Shown piece by piece: positions 415 to 15,486 of a DNA stretch of 35,418 nucleotides (position 1 is its first letter; each line of letters starts with the position of its first letter). The stretch covers positions 1 through 35,418 of IMG/VR virus record IMGVR_UViG_3300020471_000869; one strand, 5' to 3'. Origin of the DNA: a virus. Below the pieces are notes generated by a model, which was not told the DNA's origin, did no database searches, and worked only from the letters and a program-made list of their open reading frames with translations. The translations under genes were made by a program, and so were the position numbers.

Positions 415-899
415 TAGGTGAAGCGTTATTGGCAATAAAGGCGCTAGATTCTGCATATTCCCTAGTTAAAAATTCTATTGACCGAGGCAAGGAAGTATCG
501 GAAATGGCTGGCGAAATAAGTAAATTTATGAACGCCAAAGCCAATGTTGAAAAACAAATGAAAAAAGCTCATGCAGAAGGTAAAAGTGATTTATTAGAAG
601 GTTCTGCATTAGAGGAAGCAATAACATTAGATGCACAAGAACAACGGATGGAACGCATGATGGCCAAAATCGCGGAACATTATCGTGTTAAAGGACAAAC
701 ACACCGATGGGGAAAAATTAAGCAAAATGCGGCTAAAATACAGGCTCAAAGAGATAAAGATGCACAAGCTAGGCTAAAAGCAGCAGGAGAGCAAGATGCA
801 TTAGTAAAAGATATATTTACTGTTTTCGCAGTAGTTATGGCGGGTATGTTTGTAGCTGGTATAGTGTTATATTTAGTTATAAACGCTGGAGCTGAATAA
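411..899 (+). CDS. coiled-coil protein with C-terminal membrane segment, 162 aa
   Basis: Residues 1-130 are helical, highly charged and rich in Lys, Glu, Ala and Gln, with long heptad-like stretches. Residues 134-157 (IFTVFAVVMAGMFVAGIVLYLV) form one clear membrane helix near the C-terminus. It overlaps the upstream gene by 4 bases and the lipase by 1 base (TAATG), so it is in the same operon. A tail-anchored coiled coil beside a lipase, a lipoprotein and a holin candidate could be part of an envelope-disrupting complex, but it lacks the N-terminal anchor of a classical inner-membrane spanin. No family is recognised. Confidence 0.75.
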   Translation: MIGEALLAIKALDSAYSLVKNSIDRGKEVSEMAGEISKFMNAKANVEKQMKKAHAEGKSDLLEGSALEEAITLDAQEQRMERMMAKIAEHYRVKGQTHRWGKIKQNAAKIQAQRDKDAQARLKAAGEQDALVKDIFTVFAVVMAGMFVAGIVLYLVINAGAE

Positions 900-1648
900 T
901 GAAATTAGACCCTGTATTACTTAACATGGCTTGTTCATGGAGTATGAAGGCTTATAAAGAAAATGTAGAAGATGCGATTAAAATAGAAACAAAATGGAGT
1001 AGTACAACAGCTTATATCGCAAAACGTAAGACAATAGATGTAATAGCATTCAGAGGCACTGAACAAAAGCTAGATTGGTTTACAGACGCATTAGTTATAC
1101 CAGTACCCTATGCAGGTAGAATGTGTCATGGTGGTTTTACACTAGCTCACAAATCTATATGGAAAAAAGTCCTAGAACACGTTGATTTGGAAAAACGTAC
1201 ATTAATAACAGGACATTCATTAGGTGGCGCATTAGCGGAATTATCCGCTGCTAAGTTGTGGAAAAAGCATAACAACCTCAACATAATCACTTTCGGCAAA
1301 CCAAATACTTTTTTTAAAGGCTTTAAAAAGCCTATGACTACGCTCGATAATCAAATATCTTGCGTACAGGGGTCTGACCTTGTAGCAAGAATACCACGTC
1401 TATGTTATGGACCTAGTAAATCGCAAACAATGTTATACTTTGCAAATACAGGTATAGATTTTGTTAATCCTGATAAACTGACCAGAGATGAGGACAGACG
1501 TATAAAAGATGCGTTATCCGACCATTTTATGGAAGGTTATAAACAAAGATTGATGAAGTTTTTAGAGGAACAAGATAAAAAACCAAACAAAAAATTAGGT
1601 GAAGAATTGCTAGAAACCAAATTTAGAAAGAGGAAACGAAATGCTTAG
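899..1648 (+). CDS. class 3 lipase-like alpha/beta hydrolase, 249 aa
   Basis: The sequence shows the hallmarks of the fungal-lipase-like (Lipase_3) family. FRGT at residues 51-54 is the oxyanion-hole region, and the nucleophile elbow GHSLGG at 105-110 contains Ser107. Asp160 in QGSDLVARIP and His209 in LSDHF sit where the acid and histidine of the triad are expected. The likely reaction is hydrolysis of a lipid or other ester bond. There is no obvious signal peptide. The C-terminal 30 residues are Lys/Arg-rich. It lies between a membrane coiled-coil gene and a lipoprotein gene, upstream of holin and lysozyme, which suggests action on host membrane lipid during lysis; that role is inferred. 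Confidence 0.85.
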   Translation: MKLDPVLLNMACSWSMKAYKENVEDAIKIETKWSSTTAYIAKRKTIDVIAFRGTEQKLDWFTDALVIPVPYAGRMCHGGFTLAHKSIWKKVLEHVDLEKRTLITGHSLGGALAELSAAKLWKKHNNLNIITFGKPNTFFKGFKKPMTTLDNQISCVQGSDLVARIPRLCYGPSKSQTMLYFANTGIDFVNPDKLTRDEDRRIKDALSDHFMEGYKQRLMKFLEEQDKKPNKKLGEELLETKFRKRKRNA

Positions 1649-2372: not shown

Positions 2373-2792
2373 ATGGATAAATTAATAGAACAATTGAAAC
2401 GACACGAAGGCGTTAAAACACACGTTTATAAGGATATTAATGGCCTCGAGCATATTGGAGCAGGCAGAAATATCTCTGCTAGTGGCATGGGGCTAAGTCA
2501 TGAAGAAATAGATTATTTACTATCTAACGATATTCTGAGGTGCATTAAAGAGTTAAGTGCAGAGTATTCTTGGTTTGGAAACCTAGATGAAATAAGGCAA
2601 GAGGCGATAATAAATATCTTTTTCAATCTTGGGGCTACAAAATATCGTGGATTTAAGAAGGCCAACGCAGCGATGGAGGCAGCAGACTATAAACTCGCAG
2701 CAACTGAGTTTTTAGATAGCAAATGGGCGAGGCAGGTGGGTTCTCGTGCTTTAGAAATTACAGACATTATTCGTACAGGTGAATATGTCTAA
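2373..2792 (+). CDS. T4-type phage lysozyme (endolysin), 139 aa
   Basis: This is a short GH24-type muramidase predicted to cleave peptidoglycan after holin release. Residues 12-33 align with the catalytic region of T4 lysozyme: Glu12 matches Glu11, Asp21 matches Asp20, and HIGAGRN at 27-33 aligns with TIGIGHL. The usual catalytic Thr (T4 Thr26) is therefore His27 here. There is no signal peptide or SAR helix, so export depends on a holin. It starts 2 bases after the holin gene and overlaps the nuclease gene by 8 bases. The fold assignment is firm; the mechanism of the His variant is open. Confidence 0.88.
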   Translation: MDKLIEQLKRHEGVKTHVYKDINGLEHIGAGRNISASGMGLSHEEIDYLLSNDILRCIKELSAEYSWFGNLDEIRQEAIINIFFNLGATKYRGFKKANAAMEAADYKLAATEFLDSKWARQVGSRALEITDIIRTGEYV

Positions 2793-3279
2793 ACCGTACA
2801 TTTTTACGGCTTCTGTAGCAAAAATAATTGATGGAGACACTATCGATGTTACAGACATTAATCTTGGTTTTGGTATCGTTTTTAGGGGTACTGATAACGG
2901 TTATATGCGTATACGCCTTTACGGGATTGATACTGAAGAATCTCGCACTAGAGATGTGGAGGAAAAGAAATTCGGTTTATCCGCAAAAGAATTCAACAAA
3001 TCGTTTTGTCCGGTAGGTAGTGAGGTAATTTTACAAACGCACGAAAAAGGTAAATACGGTAGATGGTTAGCAGATATAAAAGTAGGTAATAAATGGCTGT
3101 GTAAAGAGCTAATAAAAAACAATTATGCAGTTGAATATTATGGACAATCGAAAAAAGACATAAAAAAAGCACATTTAGAAAATAGAAAAAAAGCTATAAT
3201 TTTAAATGAAACTCCTAATTGCTATCTCATAAAATCTTCCACTAAAACACAAAAGGCGCGTATTAGACCGTGTCGCTAG
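2785..3279 (+). CDS. staphylococcal nuclease-like (thermonuclease) protein, 164 aa
   Basis: An SNase domain spans residues 8 to about 130. The calcium and catalytic residues can be followed: IIDGDT (Asp16, Asp18), IRLYGIDTEE (Arg44, Asp49, Glu52) and GKYGRWLADI (Arg93). The full set implies active phosphodiester hydrolysis. I chose ATG 2785 because the AGGTG before it is well spaced; a GTG at 2779 is less likely. The last 40 residues are Lys-rich and not typical of the domain. The stop codon overlaps the stop of the opposing NinG-like gene within CTAG at 3276-3279. It may degrade host DNA at lysis or act in DNA metabolism. Confidence 0.88.
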   Translation: MSKPYIFTASVAKIIDGDTIDVTDINLGFGIVFRGTDNGYMRIRLYGIDTEESRTRDVEEKKFGLSAKEFNKSFCPVGSEVILQTHEKGKYGRWLADIKVGNKWLCKELIKNNYAVEYYGQSKKDIKKAHLENRKKAIILNETPNCYLIKSSTKTQKARIRPCR

Positions 3280-11179: not shown

Positions 11180-11932
11180 ATGCTAGAACTAACTTACCGA
11201 GCTATTAATACGCTCACACCCTACAGTAATAACTCACGCACGCATACCAATAAACAAATCAAGCAAATAGCTGATTCTATTGAAGAATTTGGATTTACAA
11301 ATCCTATTCTCGTAGATGAAAACGATGGTGTAATAGCAGGTCATGGGCGCATCGAGGCGGCTAAAATGCTTAATATTGAAGAAGTGCCTACAATTACGTT
11401 AGAAAATCTATCAGACGAACAAAAAGCAGCTTATGTTATAGCGGATAACAAACTGGCTCTGAATGCAGGATGGGATGAAGATAAATTACAACTGGAGTTA
11501 TTGCGATTACAAGAATTAGACTTTGATATTTCGTTAACTGGTTTCGATTTAAAAGAATTAGAAAAAATTACAGATGAAAATAAATACACCAAAAAGGTCG
11601 ATATACCAGTATATGAACCTACAGACGAAAAACCAGAAATTGGTGAATTATATGATATAGCCAAATGCCAAGAATTATTGCAACAAATTAATGGTGCAGA
11701 TATAAGCGCAGAGGAAAAAATATTTTTAACAGCGGCAGCTTACAGGCACGTGAGTTTTCATTTTGAAAATATTGCCAATTTTTATGCTCATAGTAATAAA
11801 GACATACAAGAACTAATGGAAAATAGTGCGTTGGTGATTATTGATTTTGATAAAGCCATTGAGCAAGGTTACGTTACATTAAGCGATAAAATTAGCGACC
11901 AATATACAAAGGATTATCCAGATGAGGGATGA
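11180..11932 (+). CDS. ParB-like N-terminal domain protein with extra C-terminal domain, 250 aa
   Basis: Residues 1-130 form a ParB/Srx-like domain: NSRTHTNKQIKQIADSIEEFG, then the signature VIAGHGRIEAAKMLN (51-65), VPTITLENLSDEQKAAYVIADNKLAL and SLTGFDLKEL. In many phages this domain is fused to DNA methyltransferases; here it is not. After a linker (KKVDIPVYEPTDEKPEIGELYD) comes a separate helical domain (about 160-235) ending ALVIIDFDKAIEQGYVTLSD, which I cannot name. GGAGG gives a strong ribosome site. It overlaps the glycosyltransferase gene by 11 bases, so a shared DNA-modification role is likely but inferred. Confidence 0.85.
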   Translation: MLELTYRAINTLTPYSNNSRTHTNKQIKQIADSIEEFGFTNPILVDENDGVIAGHGRIEAAKMLNIEEVPTITLENLSDEQKAAYVIADNKLALNAGWDEDKLQLELLRLQELDFDISLTGFDLKELEKITDENKYTKKVDIPVYEPTDEKPEIGELYDIAKCQELLQQINGADISAEEKIFLTAAAYRHVSFHFENIANFYAHSNKDIQELMENSALVIIDFDKAIEQGYVTLSDKISDQYTKDYPDEG

Positions 11933-12785
11933 TTTTGCAGCTTTTATATTAACGCACGGTAGAGCTGACAATGTCATAACGTATAATACGCTTAGAAAAC
12001 AAGGATATACAGGTAAAATAATTTTATTAATAGATAACGAAGATGCACAAATTGATGAATATAAGCGTAAATATGGTGACGAAGTATTTGTATTTGATAA
12101 ACAAAAAGCCATAGATATTACGGATAGTGGTGATAATTTTAAAAAACGTAATTCGGTGGTATATGCCAGAAACTATAATTTTGTTGTTGCAAAAGAATTA
12201 GGGTATAAATATTTTTTACAATTAGATGACGATTATAGTGCTTTTAGATATACCTTTGATAATTACCGTAATTACATCACGCGCAGCATATTAATTAAAA
12301 ATTTGGATAACATTATCAAATATATGCTCGAATTTTATATAGATAGTGGTGCTAAAACAATTGCCATGTCGCAAGGCGGTGATTTCATAGGCGGTGAAGG
12401 GTCTAAGGTAGCAAGTTTAGAAAGAGAGGGAAAATTTAGTCGTAAGGTAATGAATAGTTTTTTTTGTAGTACCGATAGACCTTTTAAATTTGCAGGTAGA
12501 ATAAACGAAGATGTAAATGCGTATACAGAGCTAGGCAACAAAGGCGATTTATTTATAACTGTACCGAGAATACGGTTAGAACAAATACAAACCCAAGCTA
12601 ATGCAGGAGGTTTAACAGACATATATTTGGATTTAGGAACATATATAAAAAGTTTCTATAGTGTTATGTATTCGCCATCCTGTGTAAAAATTAACGAAAT
12701 GGGTGTATCAAATAAACGATTGCATCACATGGTTAAGTGGAAATATACCTGCCCTCAAGTTATATCAGCCGATTATAGAAAATAA
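11922..12785 (+). CDS. TET-associated-type glycosyltransferase (TAGT), 287 aa
   Basis: A GT-A-like glycosyltransferase. It opens with FAAFILTHGRADNVITYNTLRK, has the metal-binding motif LQLDDDYSAF (Asp102-104), a GRINEDVNAY motif with Glu196-Asp197, and a HHMVKW segment (His268-269) near the C-terminus. This combination fits the TAGT family described by Iyer, Aravind and colleagues in phages that decorate oxidised bases in DNA. It would transfer a sugar or related group to a modified base. No TET/JBP oxygenase is seen in the window. It is transcribed between the ParB-like gene and a TagD-like nucleotidyltransferase. The family is recalled from pattern, not from a search. Confidence 0.75.
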   Translation: MRDDFAAFILTHGRADNVITYNTLRKQGYTGKIILLIDNEDAQIDEYKRKYGDEVFVFDKQKAIDITDSGDNFKKRNSVVYARNYNFVVAKELGYKYFLQLDDDYSAFRYTFDNYRNYITRSILIKNLDNIIKYMLEFYIDSGAKTIAMSQGGDFIGGEGSKVASLEREGKFSRKVMNSFFCSTDRPFKFAGRINEDVNAYTELGNKGDLFITVPRIRLEQIQTQANAGGLTDIYLDLGTYIKSFYSVMYSPSCVKINEMGVSNKRLHHMVKWKYTCPQVISADYRK

Positions 12786-12787
12786 AA

Positions 12788-13201
12788 ATGCATAAAATAG
12801 GAATTGTGGCATCTTGTTTTGATTTATTACACGCTGGGCATTTATTAATGCTTGCAGAAGCAAAAAACAACTGCAATAAATTAATATGTTGTTTGCAAAG
12901 CGACCCAACAATAGATAGACCTGAAAAAAATAAACCCATACAAACTATTGTCGAAAGATACATACAGCTCAGAGGAACAAAATATTGCGATGAAATAATA
13001 CCCTATTCCACAGAAGCCGATTTATACAATATTTTAGTCTCTTATAATATTGATATACGATTTTTAGGTGAAGATTATAAAAGCAAGAAAGAATACACAG
13101 GAAGTGATTTAAAAATACCAATACATTTTGTAAAACGACAACACAATTATTCAACCACAAATATACGAAATGAGGTTATAAAAAGGCATGAAAAAAGGTA
13201 A
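12788..13201 (+). CDS. TagD-like (glycerol-3-phosphate cytidylyltransferase-like) nucleotidyltransferase, 137 aa
   Basis: A complete small nucleotidyltransferase fold. It has VASCFDLLHAGHLLML with the HxGH signature (His15, His18), ERYIQLRGTKYCDEIIPY, FLGEDYK and a C-terminal YSTTNIRNEV matching the ISTTxIK motif of TagD. The family joins a nucleotide (usually CMP) to a phosphorylated alcohol or sugar, giving an activated donor. It begins 2 bases after the glycosyltransferase and overlaps the small terminase gene by 14 bases. The obvious inference is that it makes the donor for the TAGT enzyme, although a role in envelope polymer metabolism is possible. Confidence 0.85.
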   Translation: MHKIGIVASCFDLLHAGHLLMLAEAKNNCNKLICCLQSDPTIDRPEKNKPIQTIVERYIQLRGTKYCDEIIPYSTEADLYNILVSYNIDIRFLGEDYKSKKEYTGSDLKIPIHFVKRQHNYSTTNIRNEVIKRHEKR

Positions 13202-13586
13202 TCAAGGCGAGGGTGGCGGTAGGCCTCCTATACAATTAACTAACGACCAATTAGATACTATTGGTAAGTTAGCGCCTTACCTTACTGTAGAGCAATTAGC
13301 AGGTGTGCTTAAAATAAGCCGTAAAACATTTTTTAACCTTATGGAACGAGATGAGGAAGTTTTTACACTCTATAAAAAAGCAAAAGGTGAAGCAATAGCA
13401 AGTGTAGCCAATAATTTAGTGTTACAAGCACAAAATGGTAATACGAGTGCAGCTATATTTTATTTAAAGACACAAGCAGGCTGGAAAGAGACAGACAGGC
13501 ACGAAATAGTAGGTGATGAAGAACAACCATTCGTGTGGAAAATACAAGTTATGAATCCTGCTAAAGAAATAGAGAGTAATCAGTGA
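13188..13586 (+). CDS. terS: terminase small subunit-like protein, 132 aa
   Basis: The N-terminus is Gly-rich and basic (KKGNQGEGGGRPP). A helix-turn-helix follows (LTVEQLAGVLKISRKTFFNLMERDEEV). The segment AIASVANNLVLQAQNGNTSAAIFYLKTQAGWKE is typical of small terminase-type proteins that recognise the packaging site. It overlaps the nucleotidyltransferase gene and the next gene (4 bases), placing packaging in the modification operon. Confidence is from motif and position before the large terminase. Confidence 0.8.
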   Translation: MKKGNQGEGGGRPPIQLTNDQLDTIGKLAPYLTVEQLAGVLKISRKTFFNLMERDEEVFTLYKKAKGEAIASVANNLVLQAQNGNTSAAIFYLKTQAGWKETDRHEIVGDEEQPFVWKIQVMNPAKEIESNQ

Positions 13587-14062
13587 ATGACTTTGTAGAT
13601 GCTATAGCTAAAAAACGAGATGCAAAACATAGTGTAACAGGTAAATTTCAAAGATTTTTAGGTAAAAACACCACAGCTATAGGTATCATAGGCGAACAAT
13701 ATTTCGCTAAAACATTTAATATTTGTGCAGATTTATCCTTTAAAAGCAAAGGTGACGGTGGTAAAGATTTTAAAATACCTTTAGCTATAGATGGTCATAT
13801 TGAAAAAATCCCTGTAGATGTAAAAACTTCGTCAAGAGGCGATACGCTATTAGTGGAGCAAGGTACTGTTAAAGCAAATACTATATACGTTTTAATACAT
13901 TACGATAAAAATATTGAAGAATGTAAAATAGTAGGATGGCAGTGGGGTCTATATATTTTGCGGCAAGAAGCAAAACGGTGGCCTTTAGAAGTAATTAATC
14001 ATGCTGTGGATAAAAACGACCTGCGAAACATAAATGAGTTGCTTGTGAGGCTTATTAAGTAA
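13583..14062 (+). CDS. PD-(D/E)XK nuclease-like protein between terminase subunits, 159 aa
   Basis: Glu38 lies in a helix (IGEQYFAKTF). GDGGKDF gives Asp62, and IPVDVKTSSRGDTLLVEQ gives Asp79-x-Lys81, forming a standard PD-(D/E)XK pattern followed by an amphipathic region. It resembles phage restriction-endonuclease-fold proteins. The start overlaps small terminase by 4 bases and the stop overlaps large terminase by 1 base (TAATG), so all three are coupled. The role might be resolving or trimming DNA for packaging, or cutting unmodified DNA. The fold is likely; the function is unknown. Confidence 0.7.
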   Translation: MNDFVDAIAKKRDAKHSVTGKFQRFLGKNTTAIGIIGEQYFAKTFNICADLSFKSKGDGGKDFKIPLAIDGHIEKIPVDVKTSSRGDTLLVEQGTVKANTIYVLIHYDKNIEECKIVGWQWGLYILRQEAKRWPLEVINHAVDKNDLRNINELLVRLIK

Positions 14063-15486
14063 TGCCTACAATGATGATACCGCCGAAACTATTACCAATG
14101 GTAGAAACGCCTAAAAGGTTTAAAGTGGCTATAGGCGGTAGAGGTAGTGGTAAATCTATGACCTTTGCTGATTGTTGTTTAATGGCAGCACAGACACAAG
14201 GTATAAAAACAGCGTGTTTTAGAGAATTTCAATCCTCTATTGACGATAGCGTGTTAGCTATACTTGCAGATGAAATAGACAGATTAAATTTGCAAGGCTT
14301 TGAAATATTTAACAATCAAATACTTTATGAAGGTGAGCCAGCTTTCAAATTTCGTGGGTTAGCTCGTAATACAGATGGGGTTAAATCCATGCACGGCTTC
14401 CAGCGTTTTTGGGTGGAGGAAAGTCAAACAATAAGTTTTACAAGTTTAAAGGCATTAACGCCTACGTTACGGATAGCCGACTCAGAAATATGGTTTTCAG
14501 GTAATCCGCGGTCAAGTGTAGACCCTTTTAGTCAAAGATTTATAAAACCTTATGAAAAAGAATTGCGACGAAATGGTTATTATGAGGATGATTTACATTT
14601 AATCGTTTGGATTAATCACGATGATAATGAGTTATTTCCAGAGGTATTAGAACAAGAAAGAATACATGATAAAAAAACCATGCCAACGGCATTATACAGG
14701 CATATATGGGAGGGAGAGTACTACGATGAAGTAGATGACACCATTATTCCTGTCGATTGGTTCGATAACGCAATTGATGCGCATGAAAAGCTAGGTATAA
14801 AACAAGAAGGTGCAATTATAGCCAGCCATGACCCTAGTGATGAAGGTGGAGACAGTAAAGGCTTTGCCGTCAGACATGGTAACGTCATATTAGATGTATC
14901 AGAAAAAGTAACAGGTGATGCAGCAGAAGGTATGGATTGGGCTATAGATAAAGCACTAGAGGCAAATGCGGATTATTTTGTGTGGGATGCAGATGGATTA
15001 GGGGTAAGTTTAAAACGTCAAGTTGATAATGCTTTAACCGATAAAAAAATAGAATATGTCATGTTTAAAGGCTCGGAGGGTGTCGAAGAAGCCGAAAAGC
15101 CTTACACTGCTGGCGGTAAAACGAAAAACAAAACTAACAAAGAAACCTTTTTTAACAAACGAGCACAATACTGGTGGCGGTTAAGAGATAGGTTTGAAGC
15201 AACTAACCGAGCAATAAAAGGTGAATATATAGACCCTGACGAGTTAATTTCTTTATCAAGTAAAATAGAAAATATAGACCAATTACGTGCAGAAGTGTGT
15301 AGAATTCCATTAAAACGTAATAACATGGGCAAAATACAAATCATGTCTAAAGTAGATATGGCTAAAAAGCCTTACGAATTACCATCGCCAAATATGGGCG
15401 ATTCTCTGATGATGGCTATGTACAGACCTAACCTTGTTAAACGTCAATCGGTAAAACTTAACTACTCAGGTTGGAGTAACGCATGA
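14062..15486 (+). CDS. terL: terminase large subunit, 474 aa
   Basis: An ATPase and nuclease that pumps and cuts DNA at the portal. The Walker A motif GGRGSGKS is at 25-32. Walker B and catalytic Glu are in RFWVEES (115-121), and a coupling-type SGNP is at 146-149. The nuclease domain shows HDPSDEGGDSKG (Asp257) and VWDADGLG (Asp309, Asp311). The layout resembles Terminase_3-type enzymes such as Sf6 gp2, consistent with headful packaging and circularly permuted DNA. It overlaps the portal gene by 4 bases. Length is normal for the family. Confidence 0.95.
   Translation: MPTMMIPPKLLPMVETPKRFKVAIGGRGSGKSMTFADCCLMAAQTQGIKTACFREFQSSIDDSVLAILADEIDRLNLQGFEIFNNQILYEGEPAFKFRGLARNTDGVKSMHGFQRFWVEESQTISFTSLKALTPTLRIADSEIWFSGNPRSSVDPFSQRFIKPYEKELRRNGYYEDDLHLIVWINHDDNELFPEVLEQERIHDKKTMPTALYRHIWEGEYYDEVDDTIIPVDWFDNAIDAHEKLGIKQEGAIIASHDPSDEGGDSKGFAVRHGNVILDVSEKVTGDAAEGMDWAIDKALEANADYFVWDADGLGVSLKRQVDNALTDKKIEYVMFKGSEGVEEAEKPYTAGGKTKNKTNKETFFNKRAQYWWRLRDRFEATNRAIKGEYIDPDELISLSSKIENIDQLRAEVCRIPLKRNNMGKIQIMSKVDMAKKPYELPSPNMGDSLMMAMYRPNLVKRQSVKLNYSGWSNA

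What the first reader, a model, noticed from the sequence alone, without database searches (positions are those of the whole stretch)
11180..13201. Possible DNA hypermodification cassette: ParB-like, TAGT glycosyltransferase and TagD-like nucleotidyltransferase, with no visible base-oxidising enzyme
Three genes in a row (overlap 11 bases, gap 2 bases) encode a ParB-domain protein with an unknown C-terminal domain, a glycosyltransferase with TAGT-like DDD, NED and HH motifs, and a TagD-like enzyme that would make a nucleotide-activated donor. TAGT enzymes are known in phages with TET/JBP dioxygenases that oxidise 5-methylcytosine. Here I see no TET/JBP, no cytosine methyltransferase and no hydroxymethylase. 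Either the host or an unrecognised small gene supplies the acceptor base, or the enzyme acts on a new acceptor. The donor may be CDP-linked glycerol or a sugar alcohol rather than UDP-glucose, which would be new for phage DNA.
Basis: partly seen in the sequence, partly recalled or inferred. Interest (0 to 1): 0.78.

Follow-up and report, generated by a model that had tools for sequence, protein, structure and literature searches.

The report
Phage glycosylation cassette beside the terminase
This phage carries a conserved pair of genes, a sugar-attaching enzyme and a small partner protein always found with it, that probably decorates viral DNA with sugars, although the phage lacks every known enzyme for preparing a DNA base to receive one.

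Summary
11922-12785 is a true TAGT glycosyltransferase (PF20691, E=2e-32).

The window alone hides the real unit, which is TAGT plus the C-terminal domain of the ParB protein, here called TPD. TPD matches no Pfam or PDB entry. Searches with TPD alone found TAGT in 28/28 phage records and directly downstream in 10/10 viral contigs. Of 156 TAGT loci with enough upstream DNA, TPD precedes TAGT in 155. ParB_N is dispensable: TPD stands alone in about a quarter. T4-type TAGT phages lack TPD.

The pair usually lies just upstream of the terminase, in phages of E. coli, Lactobacillus, Bacteroidota, Nocardia and a haloarchaeal virus. TET and C5-methyltransferase were absent from all 24 records searched. 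Thymidylate-synthase-type enzymes occur only in two large phages.

TagD is optional: a contig 94-96% identical in DNA lacks exactly that gene. It shares a variable slot with UDP-galactopyranose mutase, a sugar epimerase, a sugar-nucleotide dehydrogenase and radical-SAM enzymes, which points to nucleotide-sugar tailoring.

Best reading: a DNA glycosylation module whose acceptor is not hydroxymethylcytosine. The DNA substrate is inferred; a protein acceptor is the main rival. Solitary TAGTs were already noted in print.

The parts
11180..11500 (+). ParB_N/Srx-fold domain (aa 1 to about 100, GHGR motif) of the ParB-TPD protein; dispensable accessory domain
   Evidence: PF02195 E=1.7e-6 at aa 11-90; AlphaFold pLDDT 95 or more over most of this part; PDB hits Noc, ParB, PadC, then sulfiredoxin and free serine kinase; absent from the 35 of 141 loci in which TPD stands alone
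11585..11932 (+). TPD (TAGT partner domain), the C-terminal all-helical domain (aa about 136-250) of the ParB protein; constant partner of this TAGT subfamily
   Evidence: Invariant Y136, Y145, F182, L183, R189, H190, A199, Y202, E214, D222, G230 in 66 sequences; no Pfam match; no PDB match to this part in the listed hits; TAGT present in 28/28 phage records and directly downstream in 10/10 viral contigs found with TPD alone
11922..12785 (+). TAGT glycosyltransferase, GT-A fold
   Evidence: PF20691 E=2.1e-32; phrog_842 E=2.5e-70; AlphaFold pLDDT 90.7, pTM 0.88; best PDB fold matches are UDP-sugar glycosyltransferases such as K4CP, TarP, TarS and ppGalNAcT2
12788..13201 (+). TagD/RfaE-like nucleotidyltransferase; optional gene in the tailoring slot
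   Evidence: PF01467 E=2.2e-13; PDB 3elb and 1coz; exactly absent from the near-identical contig L002, whose match breaks at window 12778 and resumes at 13188
13188..13586 (+). Terminase small subunit; marks the genomic position of the module
   Evidence: phrog_309 E=1.5e-14
14062..15486 (+). Terminase large subunit
   Evidence: PF04466 E=5.5e-29

Best explanation
The locus is a glycosylation module whose core is TPD plus TAGT, usually with a ParB_N domain fused to TPD. TAGT most likely transfers a sugar from a host nucleotide-sugar onto the phage's own DNA, late in infection or near packaging, with TPD as obligate co-factor (substrate presentation, acceptor binding or activation) and ParB_N as a nucleotide/DNA-binding accessory. 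The acceptor is not 5-hydroxymethylcytosine made by TET or a dCMP hydroxymethylase; it is either a canonical base or a nucleotide position that TPD and TAGT act on directly. The gene slot just after TAGT (TagD in this phage) varies and tailors the sugar or supplies an alternative activated donor. Shown: gene content, conservation, linkage, optional TagD, slot contents, absence of known acceptor-making enzymes. Inferred: catalysis, DNA as substrate, nature of the acceptor, and role of TPD.
For: TAGT family and GT-A fold. TPD-TAGT linkage; phages with T4-type TAGT lack TPD. The slot after TAGT, often overlapping its stop codon, holds UDP-galactopyranose mutase, an NAD-dependent sugar epimerase, a UDP-glucose dehydrogenase, radical SAM or TagD; a methyltransferase gene may adjoin, and TAGT may be duplicated in tandem. 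The same place upstream of the terminase holds ParB-TET in Mycobacterium phage Nigel and ParB-DpdA-QueC/D/E in CRB2. ParB domains associate with DNA base modification in published systems: CmoX carboxymethylcytosine (PMC12783734) and DpdB (PMC12839542). In Vibrio pv27 the pair lies among exonuclease and helicase genes rather than head genes, so DNA metabolism is the shared context. No TET or C5-methyltransferase in 24 records, TS-type enzyme in 2, N6/N4-methyltransferase in 1.
Against: No direct evidence that any of these phage DNAs is modified. The human relative GREB1 is reported to O-GlcNAcylate proteins (cited in PMC12645433), so the family is not restricted to nucleic acids. TPD has no known biochemical precedent. 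TET/JBP proteins are divergent: the positive control Nigel gp2 scored only 28 bits, under the Pfam cut-off, so a very divergent TET could be missed. Fifteen of the 24 records are IMG/VR contigs of unverified completeness.
Confidence: 0.58

Rival explanations
1. TAGT glycosylates a protein (terminase, portal or head protein, or TPD/ParB itself), as the distant human homologue GREB1 does, and TPD is its docking or acceptor subunit.
For: Position next to terminase and head genes in most loci; GREB1 reported to transfer GlcNAc to protein (PMC12645433); ppGalNAcT and other protein GTs are among the fold matches; TPD is the only invariant partner.
Against: In Vibrio pv27 the pair sits among replication genes; terminases next to the pair belong to many unrelated PHROG families, so no common protein acceptor is apparent; the analogous ParB cassettes at the same place carry DNA-modifying enzymes.
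Confidence: 0.2
2. A conventional hydroxymethyl-pyrimidine pathway: the acceptor hydroxymethyl base is made by the host or by an unrecognised phage enzyme, and TAGT adds a sugar as in T6 or TET-bearing phages.
For: The biochemically described relative (T6 TAGT) acts on glucosyl-hmC (PMC13216743); pv27 and Ah1 encode a thymidylate-synthase-family enzyme; most genes around the module are unannotated; radical SAM or methyltransferase genes adjoin some loci.
Against: Hosts range from haloarchaea to E. coli, Lactobacillus, Nocardia and Bacteroidota and are not known to share a hydroxymethylated DNA base (general knowledge); no TET, C5-MTase or hydroxymethylase in the complete small genomes; 115 of 154 loci have none of the accessory genes searched for; the TPD-linked TAGTs branch apart from the T4-type ones.
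Confidence: 0.15
3. The module modifies host surface glycans (receptor alteration or lysogenic conversion), with TagD making a teichoic- or LPS-type precursor.
For: TagD, UDP-galactopyranose mutase and sugar epimerases also serve surface polysaccharides; TarP and TarS are among the fold matches.
Against: Pfam and PHROG matches are to DNA-type TAGT and not to polysaccharide GTs; no membrane-anchoring or flippase gene adjoins; the ParB partner and its presence in an archaeal virus and Gram-positive and Gram-negative phages do not fit one surface polymer.
Confidence: 0.04

Closest known systems
TAGT family PF20691, including T6 beta-glucosyl-HMC-alpha-glucosyltransferase
   Same: Same profile, GT-A fold, DDD / NED / HH residues
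   Different: T4-type TAGTs occur with hydroxymethylase (Ah1) and without TPD; the window type always has TPD and lacks the hydroxymethyl pathway; separate branch in the tree
ParB-DpdA (DpdB/DpdA) and ParB-TET cassettes of mycobacteriophages CRB2 and Nigel
   Same: ParB-domain protein immediately followed by a base-modifying enzyme and then by the terminase
   Different: Modifying enzyme is TAGT; Nigel's ParB protein has no TPD
ParB-methyltransferase fusions (phrog_498) and CmoX carboxymethylcytosine systems (PMC12783734)
   Same: ParB_N domain of the same type (phrog_498 E=4e-50 over aa 4-145)
   Different: No methyltransferase; the C-terminal half is TPD
GREB1 (human) and 'GREB1-related protein' of E. 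coli RefSeq genomes
   Same: TAGT domain; the E. coli gene is the same ParB-TPD/TAGT pair in Rac-type prophages
   Different: GREB1 is a large eukaryotic protein reported to act on protein
TagD / RfaE nucleotidyltransferases
   Same: HAGH and STT motifs, PF01467
   Different: Far below the equivalog cut-offs for either enzyme

Membership tests
TAGT glycosyltransferase (PF20691) | Profile match above curated cut-off | tested here: met
   113 bits against 27.5
TAGT glycosyltransferase (PF20691) | GT-A fold with DDD metal site and conserved NED/HH residues | tested here: met
TAGT glycosyltransferase (PF20691) | Association with TET/JBP (the name's origin) or with hmC-glucosyltransferases | tested here: not met
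   No TET in 24 records (positive control Nigel rings); TS/hydroxymethylase-type enzyme only in pv27 and Ah1
TAGT glycosyltransferase (PF20691) | Transfers sugar to a DNA base | not testable with these tools
   Needs biochemistry
ParB partition protein | ParB_N domain | tested here: met
   PF02195 E=1.7e-6
ParB partition protein | Central HTH / parS-binding domain after ParB_N | tested here: not met
   No further Pfam domain at E<=0.001; NCBIfam parB_part 33.6 bits against 58.45; C-terminal half is TPD
Glycerol-3-phosphate cytidylyltransferase (TagD) | NCBIfam TIGR01518 equivalog cut-off | tested here: not met
   63.5 bits against 165.4
Heptose-1-phosphate adenylyltransferase (RfaE domain II) | NCBIfam TIGR02199 equivalog cut-off | tested here: not met
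   56.5 bits against 181.5
ParB-TPD / TAGT module (proposed) | TPD directly or one or two genes upstream of TAGT | tested here: met
   155 of 156 loci with enough upstream DNA; 28/28 and 10/10 with TPD as query

The most novel reading that the evidence does not exclude
TPD and TAGT together glycosylate an unoxidised, canonical DNA nucleotide directly, using ordinary host nucleotide-sugars, giving a class of DNA modification not based on hydroxymethyl pyrimidines and spread through tailed viruses of bacteria and archaea, including Rac-type prophages of many E. coli strains. The slot enzymes (TagD, UDP-galactopyranose mutase, epimerases, radical SAM) diversify the sugar.
Probability: 0.3. Interest if true: 0.87.

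Novelty: new variant of a known kind. Interest (0 to 1): 0.66.

Why it matters
A recent study counted 288 of 753 GT-bearing phages with a TAGT but no known alpha- or beta-glucosyltransferase and could only say that they may encode novel transferases (PMC13216743). This work gives the TPD-linked ones a constant partner domain, a fixed genomic place, a set of sugar-tailoring genes and tractable hosts: at least 80% of the DNA of the pair lies in 887 of 5,426 complete E. coli genomes. The question of what solitary TAGTs modify can therefore be tested in laboratory strains. If DNA is the substrate, the acceptor chemistry would be new.

Tried and rejected
TagD as integral donor supplier: rejected, since the near-identical contig L002 lacks exactly that gene. 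ParB_N as the conserved partner: rejected, since TPD is what is conserved and ParB_N is missing in 35 of 141 loci. TPD missing upstream of TAGT in 15 loci: resolved in 14 of them, where TPD lies one gene further up behind a methyltransferase or a second TAGT; only T4-like Ah1 lacks it. E. coli ynaK as a pseudogene: rejected, since the frame is open for 263 codons in three strains. PDB sequence search with TAGT: no relative. Fold search for TPD: only the ParB_N part matched in the listed PDB hits. Mycobacterium phage Cooper as TET control: record not held; Nigel used instead. Literature on restriction behaviour of HHTV-2, NTR1, LL-Ku and c5 DNA: nothing usable. The Iyer 2013 TAGT paper and the GREB1 Sci Adv 2021 paper are not held, so I could not check whether they already mention a ParB-TAGT pair.

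Full report
OBSERVATION. The three ORFs are present at the stated coordinates with the stated 11-base overlap and 2-base gap. Pfam gives ParB_N, TAGT (113 bits, cut-off 27.5) and CTP_transf_like. The record is a 35,418-base IMG/VR virus contig with P22-type portal, coat and tail factors and open reading frames running off both ends, so it may be a fragment. No TET/JBP, cytosine C5 methyltransferase, thymidylate-synthase/hydroxymethylase or N4/N6 methyltransferase was found in it.

THE REAL UNIT. Aligning the ParB proteins next to TAGT in very different viruses showed that the conserved part is the C-terminal half, not ParB_N. I call it TPD. It is an all-helical domain of about 100 residues with invariant Y136, Y145, R189-H190, Y202, E214 and D222 (window numbering). 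It has no Pfam match and its part of the model has no match among the listed PDB hits, which all cover the ParB/sulfiredoxin-fold half. In 105 of 141 loci it is fused to ParB_N; in 35 it stands alone as a protein of about 135 residues whose end overlaps or abuts TAGT, as in Vibrio phage pv27.

LINKAGE TESTS. Loci collected by TAGT similarity: 141 of 156 with enough upstream DNA have TPD immediately upstream, and 14 of the other 15 have it one gene further up, behind a methyltransferase or a second TAGT. The exception is the T4-like Aeromonas phage Ah1. Because that sample was picked by TAGT, I also searched with TPD alone: all 28 phage records with TPD are in the list of 39 TAGT records, and all 10 viral contigs found with TPD carry TAGT directly downstream. 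In the other direction, T6, Vibrio phage Kuja, Vibrio phage 1.076.O and Ah1, all with a PF20691 gene, have no TPD beyond one chance-level match in T6. In a tree of 60 TAGTs the five T4-type and similar sequences form a separate, fully supported group; some branches in that tree are long and the tree used a quick search.

DISTRIBUTION. The pair occurs in Rac-type prophages of E. coli (at least 80% of the pair's DNA in 887 of 5,426 complete genomes), L. gasseri and L. delbrueckii phages, Nocardia phage NTR1, a Porphyromonas phage, haloarchaeal virus HHTV-2, and contigs assigned to Bacteroidota, Bacillota, Kiritimatiellota, Verrucomicrobia, Cloacimonadota, Acidimicrobiaceae and others. Amino-acid identity to the window protein stays at 42-53% between haloarchaea, Nocardia, Lactobacillus and E. 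coli. In nearly all cases the terminase follows within one or two genes.

ACCEPTOR-MAKING ENZYMES. In 24 records (nine named phage records and 15 virus contigs including the window): TET/JBP 0, C5 methyltransferase 0, thymidylate-synthase family 2 (pv27 and Ah1, both about 190-220 kb), N6/N4 methyltransferase 1. Controls rang for the latter three. For TET the built-in controls were silent, so I used Mycobacterium phage Nigel as positive control: it rang at E=4e-8 but only 28 bits, so very divergent TETs could be missed.

THE VARIABLE SLOT AND TagD. Contig L002 matches the window at 96% up to base 12778 and at 94% from 13188 onward: exactly the TagD gene is missing and everything else is in place. 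TagD lies near TAGT in 14 of 154 loci with enough downstream DNA. In other loci the ORF that starts within about 60 bases of the TAGT stop codon is a UDP-galactopyranose mutase (L202, L221; a third in L245 lies 554 bases on), an NAD-dependent sugar epimerase (L226, L075, the latter followed by a UDP-glucose-type dehydrogenase) or a radical-SAM protein (about ten lineages). A methyltransferase sits beside TAGT in seven loci and TAGT is duplicated in tandem in five. In 115 of 154 loci none of these is present. Mutases, epimerases and dehydrogenases of this kind act on nucleotide-sugars, so the slot most likely tailors the donor or the attached sugar, and a default host nucleotide-sugar suffices when it is empty. 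L088 and L089 show a related cassette: more distant TAGT, radical SAM/SPASM, TagD, terminase, with a ParB_N protein without TPD upstream in L088. TagD thus recurs with TAGT in two backgrounds.

PARALLELS THAT POINT TO DNA. At the same place upstream of the terminase, mycobacteriophage Nigel has a ParB_N protein overlapping a TET/JBP gene and CRB2 has a ParB-like protein followed by a DpdA-type transglycosylase and queuosine-type genes. ParB domains are reported next to or fused with DNA-modifying enzymes in the carboxymethylcytosine system (PMC12783734), and DpdB is a ParB-like ATPase for insertion of preQ0 into DNA (PMC12839542). In pv27 the pair lies among replication genes rather than head genes. 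Together these make DNA the most likely substrate, by analogy and not by demonstration.

STRUCTURE. TAGT is predicted with high confidence (pLDDT 90.7, pTM 0.88) and its closest PDB folds are UDP-sugar GT-A enzymes, in line with the published GT2-like placement of T6 TAGT (PMC13216743). Fold matches include polysaccharide, teichoic-acid and protein glycosyltransferases, so fold alone does not tell the acceptor.

WHAT IS KNOWN. PMC13216743 reports that 288 of 753 phages with T-even-type GT homologues carry a solitary TAGT and suggests novel transferases. The PHROG name beta-glucosyl-HMC-alpha-glucosyltransferase is passed to these proteins by annotation and is probably wrong for the TPD-linked ones. 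I found no paper describing TPD, the ParB-TAGT pair or the tailoring slot in the held library, but the founding TAGT paper (Iyer et al. 2013) could not be read.

VERDICT. The cassette is a new variant of a known kind: a TAGT module with a constant partner domain and no hydroxymethyl pathway. DNA glycosylation is the best explanation (0.58); protein glycosylation is the main rival (0.2).

Noticed in passing
L163:19217-20008; L266:3001-3792; L268:101-892: RefSeq annotates ynaK upstream of the E. coli 'GREB1-related protein' as incomplete, but the frame is open for 263 codons (ParB_N + TPD) in three strains; probably an artefact of the truncated K-12 YnaK reference. K-12-type strains keep only the first 254 bases of the pair.
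   Followed up: yes
L088:100-4419 and L089:38-3952: Related but distinct cassette: distant TAGT, radical SAM/SPASM, TagD-like enzyme, terminase; in L088 preceded by a ParB_N protein without TPD.
   Followed up: partly
L186:10860-11816, L170:10871-11830 and similar: A radical-SAM protein of about 315 aa is translationally coupled to TAGT in Clostridia and Bacteroidota phages; it could modify the sugar or the base.
   Followed up: partly
L176, L177, L187, L195, L197: Tandem TAGT duplication; in L177 and L187 the first copy has lost the HH motif. May build a disaccharide.
   Followed up: no
window 899-1648: Class 3 lipase-like ORF (PF01764 E=7e-19) near the start of this phage record.
   Followed up: no
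window 2779-3279: Staphylococcal-nuclease-like protein (PF00565) next to a phage lysozyme; HHTV-2 also encodes an SNase-like protein.
   Followed up: no
window 13583-14062: 159-aa ORF between the terminase subunits with no Pfam or PHROG match; it ends in or overlaps the large terminase start.
   Followed up: no
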